DNA of 64,000 nucleotides from Patulibacter minatonensis DSM 18081. GTDB lineage: Bacteria > Actinomycetota > Thermoleophilia > Solirubrobacterales > Solirubrobacteraceae. The translations under genes were made by a program, and so were the position numbers. Below the pieces are notes generated by a model that was not told where the DNA came from, searched no databases, and was given only the letters and a program-made list of their open reading frames with translations. The stretch covers positions 4,049,859-4,113,858 of the forward strand of contig NZ_KI912613.1 of assembly GCF_000519325.1 (NCBI RefSeq), written 5' to 3'. This document shows positions 32,061-39,683 of the stretch, in pieces (position 1 is the stretch's first letter; every line of letters starts with the position of its first letter).

Positions 32061-33133
32061 GCGACGTGGAGCGTGACGCGGCCCCAGGCGTTGTTGACGT
32101 ACCCCTTGGGGTTCCAGAGCGGCCCCGGGTGCTCGGGCTGCGAGGCGGCGGCGCTGTCCCAGGCGCGGACGACGATCTCGTGGTCGCCGCGGTCCAGGTG
32201 CATCTCGGTGCTCCAGAGTCGCCAGGCCCAGCGGCCGAGGTCCTCGTCGAGGTCCGCTTCGACCCAGGTCTTCCCGCCGTCGGCCGAGACGTCGACGCGC
32301 GCGACGTGGCGCTCTCCGCCGGCGAACGCGTAGCCGCGCACCGCGACCGGACCGGCGGTCACTCGTGCGTCGTGGTCGGGCACGAGGATCTCGGCGTTCA
32401 GCGCGACCTCGCCCAGCGGTGTCCCGACCCCGGGACCGGGCTCCTGCTCGGGCTGCAGGAGGCGGTAGACGACGTCCTGGAAGAAGCCCTCCCACGGGCG
32501 GTCGCGGACCTCGACGTGGTGCAGCCACTTGACGCTTCGCGCCCCGATGTAGCCGGGCACCACGACGCGGACGGGGGCGCCGTGGACCGGTGGGAGCAGT
32601 TCGCCGTTCATCTCGTAGGCCAGCAGCACCTCGTCGCGCAACGCCTTCTCCAGCCGGATCGACCCACCGAACTCCTGTGGAGGCTCGGCCTCCTCCGACA
32701 CGTCCGCACCGACCAGGCCGACGTGCGTCGCGGTCCCGGTCGGCCGCGCGAGCGCCAGGACGTCGGCCAGCGCGACGCCGCCCCAGGTCGCGGTGCCGGT
32801 CGCGCCGGGCCCCCAGGGCTCCTCGCCCGGGATGTCCCGGACCTCGAGGAGGCCGGACCGCCGGTTGCCCGCGCACTGCAGCGTCGCGGCGACCTCGCGG
32901 CGCTGGAGGCCCCGGAGGTCGTCCAGCGAGAGGGTCAGCGGCTGCTCGACCAGGCCATCGATGCGGAGCGTCCACGCCGCCGGGTCCGTGTCGGGTACCG
33001 ACCCGTGGTTGCGCACGTAGAAGCGATCGGCGGGCGTGAGGTCGTGCTCGGCCAGTGCCGCGCGGGAGGTCTCGGCGTTCAGCGGATCGGCCGTGTGGAC
33101 GATCATCGTGTCGGTCTTGCCGTAAGCAGCCAC
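32057..33133 (-). CDS. Sulfite-oxidase-family molybdopterin enzyme
   Basis: A 358-residue member of the sulfite oxidase family. The molybdenum-binding domain has the catalytic Cys in VAATLQCAGNRRS and contacts such as VHGAPVRVVVPGYIGARSVKWLHHVEV. The C-terminal Mo-co dimerisation domain is marked by VRGYAFAGGERHVARVDVSADGGKTW. It has no signal peptide or haem domain, so it should work in the cytosol and use an unknown electron acceptor. ATG 33133 is supported because the same N-terminus is conserved in the fragment at 26354-26491. Confidence 0.9.
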   Translation of the reverse strand: MAAYGKTDTMIVHTADPLNAETSRAALAEHDLTPADRFYVRNHGSVPDTDPAAWTLRIDGLVEQPLTLSLDDLRGLQRREVAATLQCAGNRRSGLLEVRDIPGEEPWGPGATGTATWGGVALADVLALARPTGTATHVGLVGADVSEEAEPPQEFGGSIRLEKALRDEVLLAYEMNGELLPPVHGAPVRVVVPGYIGARSVKWLHHVEVRDRPWEGFFQDVVYRLLQPEQEPGPGVGTPLGEVALNAEILVPDHDARVTAGPVAVRGYAFAGGERHVARVDVSADGGKTWVEADLDEDLGRWAWRLWSTEMHLDRGDHEIVVRAWDSAAASQPEHPGPLWNPKGYVNNAWGRVTLHVA

Positions 33134-33187
33134 GAGGTGGTGCTACCCGTCCGTGCCGCTTGCGCACCTCGCGGCCGGTCCCGCGCG

Positions 33188-34000
33188 TCACCGAGAGCGC
33201 GGGGCGACGTCGTCCACGGCGCGGGCGATCGCGTCCACGTCGTCGAACGCCGAGACCCGCGGGCCCGTCGTCGCACCCCGGGGGACGACGTAGACCGACG
33301 GGGTCGCGTCGGTGCCGAGCGCCCGGATGATCCGGTCGTCAGCGGCCGTCAGGGCCCGGGAGTCCGGCGTCTCGCGGACGACGACCTGGCCACCGGTCGT
33401 GCCGGGCGCGGCCTCGGCGATGCTCCGCAGGAGCGGCTCGGTCGCCCACTCCTCCCGGGTGTCCCCCTGGTTCCAGAACGTCGTCTGGACGAAGCCCCAG
33501 AAGCGGTCCGCAGCAACGAGCCCATACGCGACCCGGCGCGCGAGCGCACCGTCGGTCGTGGCCCGCGCGGGATCGCGGAAGTTCGCGAGCACCATCCGCA
33601 GGTTCGCGCGTCCCGTCCGCACGAGACGCTCGACGATCTCCGGCTGCGTCTCGATCGCGTGCTCCTTGCAGCTGGGGCACTTCAGGTCCGAGACCTCCAG
33701 GATCGTCACGGGCGCGTCAGGGCGCCCGAGAACGGTCCCCCGCTGGGGCAGTCCCCGCAGCAGCGCAGCGGTCTCGTCGGCGCCACGGATCTCGACCCCA
33801 CGGACGGTCGTCCGCGAGCCGTCGGCGGCGGGGTCGCGCTTGAACGACCCGACGCCCACCAGCACGGCCACGACGAGCACCGCGACGGCAGCGGCCACGC
33901 CCAGGAGCCGCAGGCGCTGACGTCGCTGAGCATCAGCAGGCGACGTTCGACCGTCGGTCGCCGGAGGGTCCGTCAGCGGCGGACGAGTCGCACGGGCCAT
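33188..34000 (-). CDS. Membrane-anchored DsbA-like thioredoxin-fold protein
   Basis: A 270-residue protein starting at ATG 34000 (an extension to 34036 is possible). One membrane anchor (LRLLGVAAAVAVLVVAVLVGVGSF) leads into a DsbA-type domain. The domain has the redox motif in LEVSDLKCPSCKEHAIETQPEIV (Cys-Pro-Ser-Cys) and cis-Pro in TDATPSVYVVPRG. The active site should face the outside. Similar proteins oxidise or isomerise disulfides in actinobacterial envelope proteins. It lies 54 bp upstream of the sulfite-oxidase-like gene on the same strand and may be in the same operon. Confidence 0.82.
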   Translation of the reverse strand: MARATRPPLTDPPATDGRTSPADAQRRQRLRLLGVAAAVAVLVVAVLVGVGSFKRDPAADGSRTTVRGVEIRGADETAALLRGLPQRGTVLGRPDAPVTILEVSDLKCPSCKEHAIETQPEIVERLVRTGRANLRMVLANFRDPARATTDGALARRVAYGLVAADRFWGFVQTTFWNQGDTREEWATEPLLRSIAEAAPGTTGGQVVVRETPDSRALTAADDRIIRALGTDATPSVYVVPRGATTGPRVSAFDDVDAIARAVDDVAPRSR

Positions 34001-34104
34001 GACCGAAGTCTGCCCCACCACCAACCCCTCGAGCATTCCTTTTCGGCATACTAGGCTGGCGGGAATGACTGGTGGACCGGCTTCTCGAGGCGCATGCTGT
34101 GTTC

Positions 34105-35253
34105 ATGGCCACCACGACGAGCGACCACCACATGACCGCCACACCCGTCACGTCGGGCCGCACGTTCCTCCGCGAGCTGGAGGACCGGGGCGCCGCGTTC
34201 GCGCACATCGGCCCCAACTGGTTCGCGTCGGTCATGGGCACCGGCATCGTCGCCAACGCCGCCGCGCTGCTGCCCCGGCAGGTCGCCGGACTGCACGAGT
34301 TCGCCGTCGGCGTCTGGGTCATCGCCGCCGCCTGGCTGATCACCCTCACCGCCATCACCGCGGTCCACTGGACCCGCCACACCGACAACGCCAGGGCCCA
34401 CGCGTCGAACCCCGCGATGGCGCCGTTCTACGGCGCACCCCCGATGGCCCTGATGACCGTCGGCGCCGGCACGCTGCTGGTCGGCCACGACGTCATCGGC
34501 ATGCCCGCCGCGATCGTCGTCGCGTTCGTCCTCTGGACCCTGGGCACCCTCGGCGGCCTCGCCTCCAGCGCCCTGGTCCCCTACTGGCTCTTCACCCGCC
34601 ACGAGGTCGACGTGCAGCACACCTTCGCCACCTGGCTGATGCCCGTCGTCCCCCCGATGGTCTCCGCCGCCACCGGCGCCGCACTGATCCAGCACCTGCC
34701 CGCCGGCCAGGCCCGCGAGGCGATGCTGCTCGCCTGCTACGCCATGTTCGGCCTCAGCCTGCTCGCCTCGCTCGTCATCATCACGCTCGTCTGGGGCCGC
34801 CTGGCCTACGAGAAGACCGGGCCCGTGGCCACCGTCCCCACGCTGTTCATCGTGCTCGGGCCCCTCGGCCAGTCGATCACGGCCGCCAACCTCCTGGGCA
34901 ACCAGGCCCACATCGCCATCGCCGCACCCTTCTCCACCGGCTTCCAGGCCATGGGCGTCCTCTACGGCGCCCCGGTCTTCGGCTTCGCGATGCTCTGGCT
35001 CGTCATCGCCGCCGCGCTCGTCGTCCGCGCCGCGAAACAGGGCATGGGCTTCTCGCTGACCTGGTGGAGCTTCACCTTCCCCGTCGGCACCGTCGTCACC
35101 GGCACCTCGCTGCTGGCCACGGACACCGGCCTGGACGCCCTCGCCTGGATCGCCGTCGGCCTCTACGTCCTCCTGCTGGCCGCCTGGGTCACCGCCGCCG
35201 TCCGCACCGCCCACGGCGCCCTGCGGACCGGGACCCTGCTGCAGGCCACCTGA
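34105..35253 (+). CDS. TDT-family transporter (TehA/SLAC1-like)
   Basis: A 382-residue integral membrane protein with about ten hydrophobic helices. The family start HIGPNWFASVMGTGIVANAAALLP is present, with later IVLGPLGQSITAANLLGN and WWSFTFPVGTVVTGTSLLA, typical of tellurite-resistance/dicarboxylate transporters and SLAC1-like anion channels. Members carry tellurite, sulfite (Ssu1), malate or anions. Given nearby sulfite-oxidase and other sulfur genes, sulfite export is attractive here but not proven. ATG 34105 is chosen; upstream GTG 34072 adds a poor leader. Confidence 0.87.
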   Translation: MATTTSDHHMTATPVTSGRTFLRELEDRGAAFAHIGPNWFASVMGTGIVANAAALLPRQVAGLHEFAVGVWVIAAAWLITLTAITAVHWTRHTDNARAHASNPAMAPFYGAPPMALMTVGAGTLLVGHDVIGMPAAIVVAFVLWTLGTLGGLASSALVPYWLFTRHEVDVQHTFATWLMPVVPPMVSAATGAALIQHLPAGQAREAMLLACYAMFGLSLLASLVIITLVWGRLAYEKTGPVATVPTLFIVLGPLGQSITAANLLGNQAHIAIAAPFSTGFQAMGVLYGAPVFGFAMLWLVIAAALVVRAAKQGMGFSLTWWSFTFPVGTVVTGTSLLATDTGLDALAWIAVGLYVLLLAAWVTAAVRTAHGALRTGTLLQAT

Positions 35254-35259
35254 CCCCGA

Positions 35260-35927
35260 TCACGCGTCGGCCAGCTCTCGGGCGCGCCCGAGGACGTCGT
35301 CGAGCATCGGGGCCGTGAGGACGCCGGTCGCGGTGTTCTGGCGGCTCGGGTGGTAGCAGCCCAGGAGCAGCGGCCCGGCCGGCAGCCGGTGCTCCGCGCC
35401 ATGGCCGAAGCGTGGCCGCGGTGGCGCGTCGAACGCCTTCAAGACCGCGGACCACGTCCAGCCGCCGAGCGCCACGATCACCCGCAGCGCGGGCAATGCC
35501 GCCACCTCAGCCCGGAGATACGGCAGGCACCGGTCGCGCTCCCCGGGCGTCGGGCGGTTGCCCGGCGGGGGCATCGCACCACCGATGCCATCCACGCGCC
35601 GTCGAGGTGGAGTCCGTCTCCCCGGTGCTCCGACGTCGCCCGACTCGCGAAGCCGGCGCGGTGCATGGCCGGCATCAGCGAATCGGCGCTCGGATTGCCC
35701 GTGAACGCGCGGCCGGTGCGGTTGCCGCCGTGCGCGGCCGTCGCGAGGCCGAGCACGAAGACTCGGGCGGCGGGGTCGCCGAAGCCGGGGACCGGGCGCG
35801 CCCAGTACGCCGCCCCGGGCACCGCGCGGGAATCGTCAGCGGCCTCCTCACGGCGCGTGACCAGCCGCGGGCAGCGGCGGCAGCCGACGACCGCCGCCTC
35901 CACCGCGCTGAGCGGACCGCGCTTCAT
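35260..35927 (-). pseudogene. Type 5 uracil-DNA glycosylase, frameshifted
   Basis: The first part (from ATG 35927) has the Fe-S Cys pair in VGCRRCPRLV and the type 5 motif GLATAAHGGNRTGRAFTGNPSADSLM. It reads in frame to SVVRC. The remainder (PPPGNRPTPGERDRCLPYLRAEVAALPALRVIVALGG ... LLLGCYHPSRQNTATG) is intact in a different frame. The two join at a run of five G on the plus strand (35567-35571); one extra base there would restore a full protein of about 220 residues. Either a recent inactivating mutation or a homopolymer sequencing error. The enzyme removes uracil and hypoxanthine from DNA. Confidence 0.8.
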
Positions 35928-35995
35928 CGCGCCACCGTACCCGGGCCAGCGCGAGGAGGCACGCCCGAACGGATGGGGACGGGTACGAGCAGGGC

Positions 35996-36277
35996 ATGAA
36001 GCTGCTGCACCCCTCCCTCGAGGACCTCACCCCGCGCCACATCGAGCTGTTCTGGCGCTACCAAGTGGTCCGCACCGGCGTCGACTTCAGCGCCGCCATG
36101 TGCTTCCTCGTCGGGAGCGCGTTCTTCTTCTTCGCCTCGCTGAGCACCCCCGCGGACTGGCTCTTCCTCGTCGGCTCGATCCTCTTCGCGGTCAAGCCGA
36201 CGATCGACCTCGTCCGTTCCGCGCACCTCCGCCGACTGCCGACCACCTCGTCGCCCGCGGCGGGCGACCTGCGATGA
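35996..36277 (+). CDS. YrhK-like small membrane protein
   Basis: A 93-residue protein with a YrhK domain. RHIELFWRYQVVRTGVDFSAAMCFLVGSAFFFFASL and WLFLVGSILFAVKPTIDLVRSAH form two membrane helices with conserved Arg and Asp residues. The YrhK family is of unknown function. It is expressed away from the UDG gene and ends 26 bp before the fluoride aptamer begins. Confidence 0.75.
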   Translation: MKLLHPSLEDLTPRHIELFWRYQVVRTGVDFSAAMCFLVGSAFFFFASLSTPADWLFLVGSILFAVKPTIDLVRSAHLRRLPTTSSPAAGDLR

Positions 36278-36302
36278 TCATGGTGTTCGCGCCCTCGTGG
36301 TG

Positions 36303-36398
36303 CGTCCGAGTGATGAGGCCCGCTCCATAACCGCCGCCCGCAGTTCGGGGGGCTGATGGCTTCTACGACCACGCCCCGCCCGGGGCGCCGTAGAAGCC
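36303..36398 (+). ncRNA. Fluoride riboswitch (crcB motif) with switching hairpin
   Basis: The aptamer runs GAGTGATGAGGCCCGCTC, a variable arm, then GGGGGGCTGATGGCTTCTACG, matching the crcB RNA consensus. The last ten aptamer bases (GGCTTCTACG, 36358-36367) are perfectly complementary to CGTAGAAGCC (36389-36398), with an inner GC-rich hairpin (CGCCCCG/CGGGGCG) between them. The downstream stem therefore competes with the aptamer and would be prevented when fluoride is bound, allowing expression of the two crcB genes. Confidence 0.88.
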
Positions 36399-36567
36399 CG
36401 TGCCACGTCCGTCGCCCGCGCTGCCGCCGCGCCCCGTCCAACGACAGGAGCCGAAGTGCGCACCACCAGCAACATCGTCATCGAGGTCCTCGAGGAGAGC
36501 ACGGTCCCGGGCCTGATCGCCGCCGGCTGCGCGCGACGCGAAGCCCTTACGCGCGCGGAGAGCGCGC

Positions 36568-37008
36568 ATGAGCATCGAGCAGACCGTCGCCCGCGAAGCC
36601 AGACGCCACCACGTGCTGATCGCCGTCTTCTGCGGCGGCGCGCTCGGAACGCTTGCTCGCGCCGCCTCGTCCTCGACGTTTTCCCATGCACCGGACCGGT
36701 GGCCGTGGGCGACGTTGGCGGTCAACGTCGTCGGCACGCTGCTGCTCGGGTGGTGGAGCACCCGGCTGATGCGCTCCCCCGACGTCGATCCACGGCTGCG
36801 GCCGTTTCTCGCGACCGGGATCTGTGGCGGCCTGACGACGTTCTCGACCCTGCAGATCGAGCTCGTGCTGATGCTCGACGCACACGCCTACGCACTGGCT
36901 ACCGGCTACGCCGCCACCACGATCGTCCTGGGCCTGGTCGCCATCGTCGCCGGCCAACAGGCCGCCCACGCCCACCACCGCCGGCAACGCCGATCGGGTC
37001 GCCGATGA
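36568..37008 (+). CDS. crcB: Fluoride exporter CrcB, first subunit
   Basis: A 146-residue four-helix membrane protein of the CrcB/Fluc family: VFCGGALGTLARAASSS at the start, the polar-track helix LAVNVVGTLLLGWWS with the conserved Asn, and GGLTTFSTLQIELV with the Phe-box and TFST motif. Fluc channels export fluoride as dual-topology dimers; actinobacteria often use two homologues that pair. Preceded by a GGAGAG ribosome site and a fluoride riboswitch. The stop overlaps the second crcB start (ATGA). A basic His/Arg tail extends its C-terminus. Confidence 0.92.
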   Translation: MSIEQTVAREARRHHVLIAVFCGGALGTLARAASSSTFSHAPDRWPWATLAVNVVGTLLLGWWSTRLMRSPDVDPRLRPFLATGICGGLTTFSTLQIELVLMLDAHAYALATGYAATTIVLGLVAIVAGQQAAHAHHRRQRRSGRR

Positions 37009-37373
37009 ACGGCGCGACGCTCTGGGCGGCGGTCACCGTGGCCGGTGGATGCGGAGCCGTCATGCGGCTGCACGTCGACGAGACGATCCGAAACCGCACG
37101 CACGGCGACGCACCGGTGGGGATCTTCGTCGTCAACCTGACGGGCGCCCTGCTCCTCGGCATCCTCACCGGCGCCGCACTGCCCCACCACACGTCACTGA
37201 TCACGGCCACCGCCTTCGTCGGCGCGTACACCACGTTCTCGACCTGGATGCTCGACACCATCGGCGCCGCGAGTCGACACCAGGCCACCGTTGCCGCCGG
37301 CAACCTCGTCGGGAGTGTCGCCTGCGGGCTTGCCGCCGCCGCGATCGGGCGACAGATCGGCGTACACCTCTGA
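37005..37373 (+). CDS. crcB: Fluoride exporter CrcB, second subunit
   Basis: A 122-residue partner of the preceding protein, starting at ATG 37005. It has VTVAGGCGAVMRLHVDE, VVNLTGALLLGILTGAAL with the conserved Asn, and AFVGAYTTFSTWMLDTIGAA. Four membrane helices are expected. In heterodimeric Fluc systems the two subunits face in opposite directions, and the coupled ATGA overlap supports equal production. The C-terminus (VACGLAAAAIGRQIGVHL) is short. Confidence 0.92.
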   Translation: MNGATLWAAVTVAGGCGAVMRLHVDETIRNRTHGDAPVGIFVVNLTGALLLGILTGAALPHHTSLITATAFVGAYTTFSTWMLDTIGAASRHQATVAAGNLVGSVACGLAAAAIGRQIGVHL

Positions 37374-37406
37374 GACCGAAGACCGCGAGATACCGACGAT
37401 CCCACG

Positions 37407-37580
37407 AAGGGGCGTCCTACGGGGCACCGCCAGTGCCTATCTGGATGCCGACGACAGTGGCCGGTTCGGGGCGGTGTCCGAGGTCCGCGAAGTAGACGTC
37501 TCAGGCCTCGTCGCGCGTCTCCCCCACGCGGGTCTCGTTCCGGCGCCGTCACACGTCTCGATCTGGTGACGTTCGACACG
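37407..37580. repeat. Diverged 174-nt repeat, copy A
   Basis: This segment aligns with 58528-58701 over its whole length: both start AAGGGGCGT, share CTGGATGCCGAC-like and GGTCTC/TTTCGGCGCC-like blocks, and end in the identical 20-mer CGATCTGGTGACGTTCGACA plus flanks. No reading frame is kept in both copies. It may be an IS or mobile-gene remnant, or a structured noncoding element. Confidence 0.55.
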
Positions 37581-37624
37581 ACACCTTCCCGAGCGGCACG
37601 GTTCGGGCGTCCACAGCGGCGTGA

Positions 37625-38047
37625 CTACGTCGCCGTGTGCTGGTGGTTCGTGGCCGTTGAGTCGCCGACGAGGTCGGACGATTGGATGGTGAGGATGCAG
37701 CCGATCGCGCGCAGCACTCGGACGTAGCGTGCGTCGGTATCGGGGGCGATCGCGATCTGGGTGGCACGGTCCACGCCGAGCTGCCGTCGGAGGTCGTGCA
37801 GCACGGCGGCGTGGTCGGCGGGCACGCCGGGGTGAAACTGCGGCGGGCAGCCCGCCGCGAGGGCTGCCGCGACGGCGTCCCCCTCCCCGACGGCAGGGGG
37901 AATGCGCGGGTCGCGCTCTCCCGCCGCTTCGATCCGCTCGTAGAGGACCTCGAGGAGCGGCCCGGCGATCGCGATCGTCCCGGAGGGCCGGACGGCCGCG
38001 AGGCGGTCGGCGGCTGCCGTCACGGCGCTGGTGCCTGTCATGGGCAT
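37625..38047 (-). CDS. Hypothetical protein
   Basis: A 140-residue frame starting at ATG 38047 (or M3 at 38041). The helical start TSAVTAAADRLAAVRPSGTIAIAGPLLEVLYERIEAAGERDPRIPPAVGEGDAVAAALA leads to a second part with QFHPGVPADHAAVLHDLRRQLGVDRATQIAIAPDTDARYVRVLRAIGCILTIQ. It looks like a soluble alpha/beta protein, but I recognise no family. It follows the GMC oxidoreductase on the other side of a 52-bp gap and is on the same strand, so it could be the last gene of that operon. Confidence 0.55.
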   Translation of the reverse strand: MPMTGTSAVTAAADRLAAVRPSGTIAIAGPLLEVLYERIEAAGERDPRIPPAVGEGDAVAAALAAGCPPQFHPGVPADHAAVLHDLRRQLGVDRATQIAIAPDTDARYVRVLRAIGCILTIQSSDLVGDSTATNHQHTAT

Positions 38048-38099
38048 CGTTCTCTCAGACGTTGGAGGGGCGACGGCGGGTCGCGGCGTTCTGGGTCGG

Positions 38100-39683
38100 T
38101 CAGGCCGTCGCGGCGACGTCGGTCACGGCGGCGGTGGCGTCCTGGCGGATCATGTCGGCGGCCTTCTCGGCGATCATGATCACCGGCGCGTTGGTGTTGC
38201 CACGGACGATGCTCGGCATCACCGAGGCGTCGACGACGCGCAGACCGCGAACGCCATGGACGCGCAGCCGTGCGTCGACGACGGGCCCGATCGCGCAAGT
38301 CGAGGTGGGGTGGTAAATCGTCATCGTGTTGGCGGTGACGTAGTCCCAGAGGTCCTCGTCGGAGACGTCGGGTGTGGGGGCGAGGAACTCGCCGGTGATG
38401 AAGTCCTTCAGGGCGTCCTGCTGCGAGATCTCCAGCGCGACGCGGGCGCCAGCGAGCATCGTCGCGCGGTCCTCCTCGGTCGTGAGGTAGTTGTGGATGA
38501 TCCGCGGCTTGGAGTGCGGGTTGGCGGTCCGCAGCGTCACGGAGCCGCGGCTGGTCGGCTTGACGACTCCGGGTCCGAAGGCCACGCCGTGCTCGACGGC
38601 CGGACCGAGCCCTTCCTGCCAGAACAGCGCCGGGGCGCAGTGGAACTGGCAGTCGGGTGCGTTGAGGCCCGGGCGGGTGCGGATGAAGCCGCCGGCCTCG
38701 GCGATGTTGGAGGTCAGCGGCCCGGTGCCCTCGGTCTGTAGCTGGGCGACGTTCTCGGGCGTCAACGCGGTCATGAGCGATTCGTAGTCCGCCGACCAGT
38801 TCATCAGCAGCATGCAGTGGTCCTGCAGGCCCTGACCGACGGGCAGCTCCTTGCGGACCTCGATCCCGAACGGCGCGAGACCCTCGGCGGGACCGATCCC
38901 AGAGAGCATCAGCAGCTGCGGGGACTGGTAGGCGCCCGCGCAGACGAGGACCTCGCGGGCGGCGTGGACCTCCTCGATCGTGCCGGCGTGATCGATCTCG
39001 ACGCCCGACGCGCGGTCGCCGTCAAACAGCAGGCGCAGTGCCGTGGCCTCGGTGAGGACGGTCAGGTTCTCGCGGTCGGTCACGGGGTGCAGGTACCGCA
39101 CGGCGGTGCTTGCGCGCATGCCGTTCTCCTGCGTGGTCTGGTACCGGCCGAAGCCTTCCTGGCGGGCGCCGTTGAAGTCGGGGTTCTTCTCGTGTCCGGC
39201 CTGGTTGGCGGCCTCGACGAACGCGTCGACGACAGGGTTCATCGAGCGGCTCTCGCGCACCGGCAGCGGGCCGCCGGTGCCGTGAAAGAGGTCCTCGCCG
39301 CGCTCCTGGTCCTCGGAGCGCTTGAAGTACGGCAGGACGTCGTCGTAGTTCCAGCCCTCAGCGCCGAGGGTCTCCCACTCGTCGTAGTCGACGCGGTTTC
39401 CGCGGATGTAGACCATCGCGTTCATTGACGAGCAGCCGCCGAGCACCTTCGCCCGTGGCAGGTAGGCGCGGCGGCCGTTGAGGCCGGGCTCCGGCTCGGT
39501 GTGGAAGTCCCAGTCCAGGCGGCCCTTGAAGAGCGCGCCGAACGCGGCGGGGATGTGGATCTCCTGGTCGGTGTCGGCACCGCCGGCCTCCAGGAGCGCC
39601 ACGGTGACGGTGGGATCCTCGGTCAGGCGGGCGGCGAGGACGGCGCCGGCAGAGCCGGCCCCGACGATGACGTAGTCGTACAC
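38100..39683 (-). CDS. GMC-family FAD oxidoreductase (choline/alcohol dehydrogenase type)
   Basis: A 527-residue flavoenzyme. The dinucleotide motif is YDYVIVGAGSAGAVLAARL, the first GMC signature is in RAYLPRAKVLGGCSSMNAMVYIRGN, the second in GAYQSPQLLMLSGIGPAEGL, and the catalytic His is in TIYHPTSTCAIG with a partner Asn in VRGNTNAPVIMIAEKAADMI. It oxidises an alcohol to an aldehyde, probably of an aliphatic or terpene substrate. GTG 39683 is preceded by a CAGGAGA ribosome site. It follows the P450 gene on the same strand by 110 bp, so hydroxylation by the P450 then oxidation here is a natural two-step path. Confidence 0.9.
   Translation of the reverse strand: MYDYVIVGAGSAGAVLAARLTEDPTVTVALLEAGGADTDQEIHIPAAFGALFKGRLDWDFHTEPEPGLNGRRAYLPRAKVLGGCSSMNAMVYIRGNRVDYDEWETLGAEGWNYDDVLPYFKRSEDQERGEDLFHGTGGPLPVRESRSMNPVVDAFVEAANQAGHEKNPDFNGARQEGFGRYQTTQENGMRASTAVRYLHPVTDRENLTVLTEATALRLLFDGDRASGVEIDHAGTIEEVHAAREVLVCAGAYQSPQLLMLSGIGPAEGLAPFGIEVRKELPVGQGLQDHCMLLMNWSADYESLMTALTPENVAQLQTEGTGPLTSNIAEAGGFIRTRPGLNAPDCQFHCAPALFWQEGLGPAVEHGVAFGPGVVKPTSRGSVTLRTANPHSKPRIIHNYLTTEEDRATMLAGARVALEISQQDALKDFITGEFLAPTPDVSDEDLWDYVTANTMTIYHPTSTCAIGPVVDARLRVHGVRGLRVVDASVMPSIVRGNTNAPVIMIAEKAADMIRQDATAAVTDVAATA

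What the first reader, a model, noticed from the sequence alone, without database searches (positions are those of the whole stretch)
36303..36398. Fluoride riboswitch whose expression platform directly re-pairs the aptamer
The last ten aptamer bases GGCTTCTACG are perfectly complementary to CGTAGAAGCC 22 nt downstream, with a GC-rich hairpin between. The switch logic can be read from sequence alone, and it controls a two-gene heterodimeric crcB operon.
Basis: partly seen in the sequence, partly recalled or inferred. Interest (0 to 1): 0.55.

Follow-up and report, generated by a model that had tools for sequence, protein, structure and literature searches.

The report
Ordinary fluoride riboswitch with unusual hairpin
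This looks like a fluoride-sensing RNA switch in front of two fluoride-channel genes; its hairpin steals a strand from the sensor in the way already described for this family, though here it lacks the two usual output signals.

Summary
Window 36300-36372 matches the Rfam fluoride aptamer RF01734 at 31.3 bits, E 6e-7, just under the gathering score of 34. GGCTTCTACG (36358-36367) is perfectly complementary to CGTAGAAGCC (36389-36398); the gap is 21 nt, not 22. Such a partner arises in 12 of 20,000 shuffles. Two CrcB genes follow. The claimed novelty is not new: a hairpin overlapping the crcB aptamer was described with the motif in 2010 (PMC2864571) and has since been studied in detail (PMC11077080, PMC13273304). 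In the same bacterial order the re-pairing strand usually carries ribosome-binding-site letters: 51 of 64 aptamers, and 38 of those 51 have ATG/GTG at the right spacing against 15.7 expected. Here that strand has none, no T-run follows, and crcB1 starts 169 nt downstream. The most likely reading is a fluoride ON switch acting through a U-less or Rho-assisted attenuator. That last step is inferred. Verdict: a new member of a known kind, low interest.

The parts
36300..36372 (+). Fluoride riboswitch aptamer, RF01734 match over model positions 1-64 of 64
   Evidence: 31.3 bits, E 6e-7, below gathering score 34; only match at E <= 0.001 in the own genome
36308..36325 (+). P1 hairpin: GAGUG 36308-36312 with CGCUC 36321-36325 (one U-G pair); loop AUGAGGCC 36313-36320
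   Evidence: read from the sequence and the alignment to the Rfam consensus
36315..36320 (+). 5' strand of the pseudoknot, GAGGCC, pairs with GGCUUC 36358-36363 (one G-U wobble, 36317 with 36361)
   Evidence: read from the sequence by homology with the described aptamer; duplex energy -7.7 kcal/mol
36333..36353 (+). P3 stem-loop, GCC 36333-36335 with GGC 36351-36353, extended by CCCG/CGGG after a 1x1 mismatch
   Evidence: alignment and fold
36358..36398 (+). Expression-platform hairpin: outer 10 perfect pairs 36358-36367 / 36389-36398, inner 6 pairs 36372-36377 / 36382-36387; mutually exclusive with the pseudoknot
   Evidence: -28.7 kcal/mol, 0 of 200 shuffles as stable; strand against invader -16.0, pseudoknot -7.7 kcal/mol
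36399..36455 (+). Spacer after the hairpin: C-rich (24 C, 15 G in 36400-36449), no T-run, no SD next to the hairpin
36456..36567 (+). Possible leader ORF: GTG with AGGAG at 36446-36450. The frame stays open through crcB1 to the crcB2 stop, so a separate small protein is doubtful
   Evidence: third-position G+C 0.92 against 0.68 and 0.58 in the other frames; no Pfam or NCBIfam match; found in 2 of 61 genomes, this one and G002
36568..37008 (+). crcB1, fluoride channel subunit, GGAG at 36557-36560
   Evidence: PF02537 95 bits; NF010812 148.7 bits over cut-off 128; K+R 13 on the N-terminal side, 1 on the other
37005..37373 (+). crcB2, partner subunit, start overlaps the crcB1 stop
   Evidence: PF02537 77.2 bits; NF010824 125.4 bits over cut-off 99; K+R 1 on the N-terminal side, 4 on the other (where the script picked only three of the expected four helices)

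Best explanation
A fluoride-responsive ON riboswitch controlling a paired-subunit fluoride channel operon (crcB1-crcB2) in an actinobacterium, by its relatives of the order Solirubrobacterales. With fluoride and magnesium, the pseudoknot 36315-36320/36358-36363 is held and the platform hairpin cannot form, so the operon is expressed. Without fluoride, CGTAGAAGCC (36389-36398) displaces the pseudoknot strand and a very stable hairpin of 10 + 6 pairs forms. Shown by computation here: the aptamer match, the mutually exclusive pairings and the two CrcB genes. Inferred from the family: fluoride binding and the direction. Inferred only: that the hairpin acts by attenuating transcription, as a terminator without a T-run or with help from Rho, because it lacks the ribosome-binding site that relatives usually carry in that strand and lies 169 nt before crcB1.
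For: RF01734 alignment over the full model with P1, P3, the AUGAGGCC loop, AUAACCGCC and CUGAUGGCUUCUAC. Perfect 10-bp re-pairing at the right place, 12 of 20,000 shuffles. Strand against invader -16.0, pseudoknot -7.7 kcal/mol. CrcB pair directly downstream. Family mechanism in print: terminators overlap the crcB motif and ligand should raise expression (PMC2864571); pseudoknot strand exchanged into the terminator base (PMC11077080; PMC13273304). Hairpins take the aptamer strand across the order: helix of at least 7 bp in 44 of 64, at least 8 bp in 30 of 64; the shuffle control is moderate, the observed length being reached in at most 5 of 100 shuffles for 28 of 64 (median 7 of 100). For an attenuator: no SD letters in the invading strand, and 9 contiguous pairs without a G-U wobble, the longest wobble-free helix in that count, shared only with the identical G002 copy; Rho gene present; T-run terminators not above chance in 60 kb of this window, 10 found against 12.3 expected, so a T-run may not be what this genome uses.
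Against: Score below Rfam's gathering threshold. No T-run after the hairpin, and a published test of 1901 sequences found nearly no transcriptional variants in Actinomycetota with E. coli RNA polymerase (PMC13273304), so a transcriptional output is against the trend of the phylum. By my mapping the pseudoknot's top pair is C-G and its wobble lies elsewhere, whereas a wobble at position 1 was needed for switching in the tested system (PMC11077080). In computed folds the SD and start of crcB1 hardly change between the two states, one base of AGGAG opens (0.55 to 0.98) and GTG 36400 becomes paired when the aptamer is held (0.83-0.89 to 0.00-0.03), so no clear translational route is visible, but the pseudoknot was not modelled. 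The only near copy (G002) is identical here, so it gives no covariation.
Confidence: 0.62

Rival explanations
1. Translational control. As in relatives, the hairpin governs ribosome access, here through a weak start (GTG 36400 after AGAAG, or GTG 36456 with AGGAG) whose translation couples to crcB1 or protects the mRNA from Rho.
For: 51 of 64 aptamers in the order have SD-like letters in or beside the re-pairing strand, and 38 of these 51 have ATG/GTG 4-14 nt later against 15.7 expected. The frame from GTG 36456 has coding-like third positions, 0.92, and AGGAG, one base of which opens when the aptamer is held. The phylum is almost all non-transcriptional in the published assay (PMC13273304).
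Against: In the window copy the re-pairing strand reads CGTAGAAGCC, without GGAG or GAGG; GTG 36400 opens only 38 codons, its AGAAG is 3 nt away, and in the computed folds it is free without ligand and paired when the aptamer is held, the wrong way round. The ORF from 36456 does not stop before crcB1 and has no relative outside G002 among 61 genomes. AGGAG 36446-36450 and crcB1's own GGAG are outside the hairpin.
Confidence: 0.25
2. Uncoupled relic. The aptamer is intact, but an insertion of about 150 nt separated the hairpin from crcB1, and the switch no longer controls anything.
For: In the same-genus copy L007 an ATG that opens a CrcB frame (PF02537 92.4 bits) lies 9 nt after the hairpin; here the distance is 169 nt. 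A second crcB pair without a detected riboswitch exists in the genome.
Against: The hairpin is perfect rather than decayed, and P1, P3 and the pseudoknot can all form, with one wobble in P1, one in the pseudoknot and one mismatch in P3. The copy in G002 is identical over 2.9 kb, so decay has not been measured.
Confidence: 0.1
3. Chance resemblance, not a fluoride aptamer.
For: Below the gathering score; G+C 71%, where perfect inverted repeats are common.
Against: E 2.0e-6 in the whole genome, and the single hit lies directly upstream of crcB genes. Relatives with scores over the threshold share its core: L006 (35.2 bits) has GATGAGGCCCGCTCCATAACCGC letter for letter.
Confidence: 0.03

Closest known systems
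Fluoride riboswitch, crcB motif, Rfam RF01734 (Bacillus cereus crcB type, transcriptional)
   Same: Aptamer architecture; platform hairpin formed by the pseudoknot strand and its complement just downstream; controls CrcB
   Different: No T-run after the hairpin; score under the gathering threshold; G+C-rich inner stem; pseudoknot wobble not at position 1 by my mapping
Translational fluoride riboswitches (Pseudomonas syringae and Burkholderia pseudomallei controls named in PMC13273304, passages; the Solirubrobacterales relatives found here)
   Same: Aptamer; in the relatives found here the hairpin re-pairs the same aptamer strand and the core is nearly identical
   Different: The re-pairing strand here holds no ribosome-binding site and crcB1 starts 169 nt away; the platforms of the two published controls were not compared
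Fluc/CrcB paired-gene fluoride channels (PMC3755343, passages)
   Same: Two adjacent homologous genes, matching different curated models, opposite charge bias
   Different: No difference was found in what was tested; heterodimer formation not tested

Membership tests
Fluoride riboswitch (RF01734) | Covariance-model match over the family's gathering score | tested here: inconclusive
   31.3 bits against 34, so the curated cut-off is missed; E 6e-7 in 401 nt, 2.0e-6 in the genome
Fluoride riboswitch (RF01734) | P1, P3 and pseudoknot with the conserved AUG loop, AACCGC(C) joiner and CUGAUGG...CUAC strand | tested here: met
   alignment and sequence; one 1x1 mismatch inside P3; the pseudoknot is read by eye
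Fluoride riboswitch (RF01734) | Lies upstream of a fluoride-resistance gene | tested here: met
   two CRCB genes on the same strand
Fluoride riboswitch (RF01734) | Binds fluoride with magnesium | not testable with these tools
   needs in-line probing
Transcriptional fluoride riboswitch with intrinsic terminator | Hairpin overlapping the aptamer's pseudoknot strand | tested here: met
   36358-36398
Transcriptional fluoride riboswitch with intrinsic terminator | T-run directly after the hairpin | tested here: not met
   CGTGCCACGTCCGTCGCCCG follows; not listed by the terminator scan
Translational fluoride riboswitch | Ribosome-binding site inside the re-pairing strand, start codon a few nt later | tested here: not met
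   no GGAG/GAGG/GGAA/AGGA in or within 2 nt of the strand; the first open frames listed start at 36456 and 36568; GTG 36400 opens 38 codons only
Fluc/CrcB fluoride channel pair | Each gene matches the CrcB family | tested here: met
   PF02537 95 and 77.2 bits over 32.9; NF010812 and NF010824 over their own cut-offs
Fluc/CrcB fluoride channel pair | Subunits of opposite orientation | tested here: inconclusive
   K+R 13:1 in crcB1 and 1:4 in crcB2 point that way, but by hydropathy only, few charges in crcB2, and its third helix was not picked by the script
Fluc/CrcB fluoride channel pair | Works only as a heterodimer | not testable with these tools
   needs reconstitution or gene removal

The most novel reading that the evidence does not exclude
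In this lineage a translational fluoride switch has turned into an attenuator. The strand that elsewhere is both invader and ribosome-binding site (GTGGAGG type, with G-U wobbles) has become a wobble-free perfect complement without a ribosome-binding site, and a new leader of about 170 nt lies between it and crcB1. The order would then hold two platform types built on the same hairpin: helices of at least 8 bp without SD letters have no wobble in 6 of 6, those with SD letters in 1 of 24 (L001 and L012 are one sequence, and SD letters opposite the aptamer strand favour wobbles by themselves).
Probability: 0.3. Interest if true: 0.4.

Novelty: new member of a known kind. Interest (0 to 1): 0.2.

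Why it matters
As a single riboswitch it adds one more fluoride switch, in an order for which I looked up no earlier work of this kind. The comparison is of some use. Published work reports that Actinomycetota fluoride aptamers almost never terminate transcription in an E. coli assay (PMC13273304). The loci here suggest what many of them in one actinobacterial order have instead: the aptamer's own conserved CUCC/CUUC strand pairs with the ribosome-binding site. They also single out this copy as an exception that could be tested with an actinobacterial polymerase and Rho.

Tried and rejected
T-run terminator: rejected from the sequence and the scan. A general use of T-run terminators in this stretch: not above chance in 60 of the 64 kb.

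Sequestration of the crcB1 or leader ribosome-binding site by alternative folds: partition-function folds with the aptamer free or held unpaired show no change at crcB1, a small opening at AGGAG, and closing of GTG 36400. The pseudoknot was not modelled, so this is weak.

A small leader protein at 36456: coding-like third positions, but no stop before crcB1, no family match, and found only here and in the near-identical G002 copy among 61 genomes. Left undecided.

A riboswitch at the second crcB pair: none at E up to 5 in the 1.7 kb searched.

A first attempt to orient loci read minus-strand hits on the wrong strand. In one search one hit in a locus cut by a contig end (L021) was placed wrongly. 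Both were redone, and the counts come. Of the 73 RF01734 hits, all 73 were read. 9 were left out of the count because the motif test did not place the strand: L014, which looks like chance, and the 8 loci with an extra stem. Among the 64 counted, L001 and L012 are the same sequence, some others are close copies, L080 may also carry an extra insert, and L088 may be chance. 13 of 64 lack SD letters beside the helix and 5 of these 13 have no helix of 6 bp or more; 13 of the 51 with SD letters have no ATG/GTG at the tested spacing. These are results against a uniform translational platform.

Full report
What is there. The default Rfam scan of the 64 kb window lists no family. With the E-value threshold, 36300-36372 matches the fluoride riboswitch RF01734 over the whole model with 31.3 bits and E 6e-7; the gathering score is 34. 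In the whole genome it is the only match at E <= 0.001, E 2.0e-6. The parts can be read off: P1 GAGUG/CGCUC, loop AUGAGGCC, joiner CAUAACC, P3, then CUGAUGGCUUCUAC, whose preceding-G strand GGCUUC pairs with GAGGCC of the loop. The ten bases in question, 36358-36367, are perfectly complementary to 36389-36398. The gap is 21 nt and holds a 6-bp stem. The hairpin alone folds at -28.7 kcal/mol with z -4.61 and 0 of 200 shuffles as stable. A perfect 10-nt complement of any part of 36348-36372 occurred in 12 of 20,000 shuffles of the 90 nt from 36364. With G-U pairs allowed, the window's 9-bp helix was reached in 3 of 100 shuffles.

The genes. crcB1 (36568-37008) and crcB2 (37005-37373) overlap by ATGA. 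Both pass the PF02537 cut-off and each passes the cut-off of a different NCBIfam CrcB model. The K+R bias is 13:1 towards the N-terminal side in crcB1 and 1:4 in crcB2 (the script picked three of the expected four helices in crcB2). This fits, without proving, the paired, oppositely oriented subunits described for Fluc channels, where the active channel of one gene pair needed both proteins (PMC3755343, passages read). The genome has a second crcB pair at C1:1140866-1141566, with no RNA family match in the 1.7 kb around it.

Why it is not new. The 2010 paper that described the crcB motif says that in many cases predicted terminators overlap the conserved motif, so ligand should raise expression (PMC2864571, passages read). 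PMC11077080 (abstract, introduction and passages read) studies exactly this overlap between pseudoknot and terminator. PMC13273304 (abstract, three sections and passages read) gives a covariation model in which the pseudoknot strand is shared with the terminating stem, and tested 1901 natural sequences. The paper that I recall as identifying fluoride as the ligand is not held and is known to me only from recall.

What comparison adds. RF01734 was searched in 232 genomes of the order: 51 of 232 have a match, 73 matches in all. I place the order as Solirubrobacterales because contigs with the same lengths as those of G013, G021 and G024 (same family as the window's genome) carry titles naming Actinobacteria, Solirubrobacteraceae and Solirubrobacterales. 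The 73 matches were read with their downstream DNA. In 64 the pseudoknot strand could be placed. A contiguous helix between that strand and the next 85 nt, wobbles allowed, has at least 7 bp in 44 of 64 and at least 8 bp in 30 of 64; shuffled downstream DNA reaches the observed length in a median of 7 of 100 trials, and in at most 5 of 100 for 28 of 64. The re-pairing strand, or 2 nt beside it, holds GGAG, GAGG, GGAA or AGGA in 51 of 64. This alone is partly built in, because the conserved aptamer strand resembles an anti-ribosome-binding site. The independent sign is the start codon: ATG or GTG at spacing 4-14 nt in 38 of these 51 against 15.7 expected from shuffles (ATG alone 25 against 8.3). 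The loci are related, so these are not independent trials. None of the 59 with a helix of at least 6 bp has four T in a row within 10 nt after it. So a common platform in this order hides the ribosome-binding site with the aptamer's own strand; 13 of 64 lack SD letters there and do not fit. This agrees with the published remark that Actinomycetota have nearly no transcriptional variants (PMC13273304 discussion).

How the window differs. Its re-pairing strand is CGTAGAAGCC, without such letters. The next good start is GTG 36456 (AGGAG at 36446-36450), 57 nt after the hairpin, and crcB1 starts 169 nt after it with its own GGAG. In a same-genus relative (L007) an ATG opening a CrcB frame lies 9 nt after the hairpin. 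The window's helix in this count is 9 bp without wobble, the longest such among the 64, apart from the identical G002 copy. Helices of at least 8 bp without SD letters have no wobble in 6 of 6, those with them in 1 of 24, with the caveats given under the novel case. I infer that the hairpin here works on its own as an attenuator. Terminators without a poly-U tail have been reported from an actinophage; I saw only the title of that paper, in the reference list of PMC13273304. A Rho gene is present and the 50 nt from 36400 have more C than G (24 to 15). T-run terminators are not above chance in 60 kb of this window: 10 found, 12.3 expected. Against it stand the phylum trend, the missing T-run itself and the place of the pseudoknot wobble.

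Verdict. The identity (fluoride switch before a CrcB pair) is well supported by computation although the score is under the curated threshold. The novelty claim is wrong, and the statement that the logic is readable is only half right. Fluoride response remains untested.

Noticed in passing
L081, L085, L086, L087, L089, L090, L091, L092; further matches L093, L096, L098: Fluoride aptamers with an extra stem-loop apparently inserted between P1 (CAGAUGGAGCCCUG and the like) and the AACCGCC joiner, tail mostly CUCCUUUCGCG in place of CUAC, re-paired downstream by CGCGARAGGAG in 8 of 11. The inserts differ in sequence; 5 of 11 insert folds were reached by at most 1 of 200 shuffles, but 6 of 11 by 8 or more, one by 130. 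A pattern for it occurs in 6 of 399 genomes of the class, 2 of 128 genera, with no match of the reversed control. Rfam scores the first eight at 22-26 bits. Whether an optional P2 has been described is unchecked beyond one paper search.
   Followed up: partly
window 35567-38463: A 6.4 kb contig of another genome of the genus (G002, L043) is identical to the window over these 2.9 kb, while all 74 differences (one of them a gap) lie in 32153-35566. This could mean a recent exchange of the block with the riboswitch and crcB genes.
   Followed up: partly
window 36456-36567: Frame from GTG with AGGAG has third-position G+C of 0.92 but no stop until the crcB2 stop; found in 2 of 61 genomes, this one and G002.
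   Followed up: partly
G160:C49:2288- and 2454+; G159:C24:29379- and 29558+; G143:C26:9488- and 9618+; G086:C238:6124- and 6276+: Pairs of fluoride aptamer matches head to head, 63-101 nt apart on opposite strands; one genome (G160) has 10 matches, 6 of them on one 11.5 kb contig.
   Followed up: no
G000:C1:1140866-1141566: Second crcB pair in the same genome without a detected riboswitch; by eye close in sequence to the window pair.
   Followed up: partly
L053 (G160:C255): Another copy whose re-pairing strand reads GTAGAAGCC as in the window; here it is followed by AAAAGAGGAGG and ATG, so the hairpin sits just before the ribosome-binding site instead of containing it.
   Followed up: no
window 34072-35253 and 35996-36277: Genes upstream of the switch: a SLAC1-type anion channel (PF03595, 263.9 bits) and a YrhK-like protein (PF14145, 70 bits) directly before the aptamer.
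   Followed up: no
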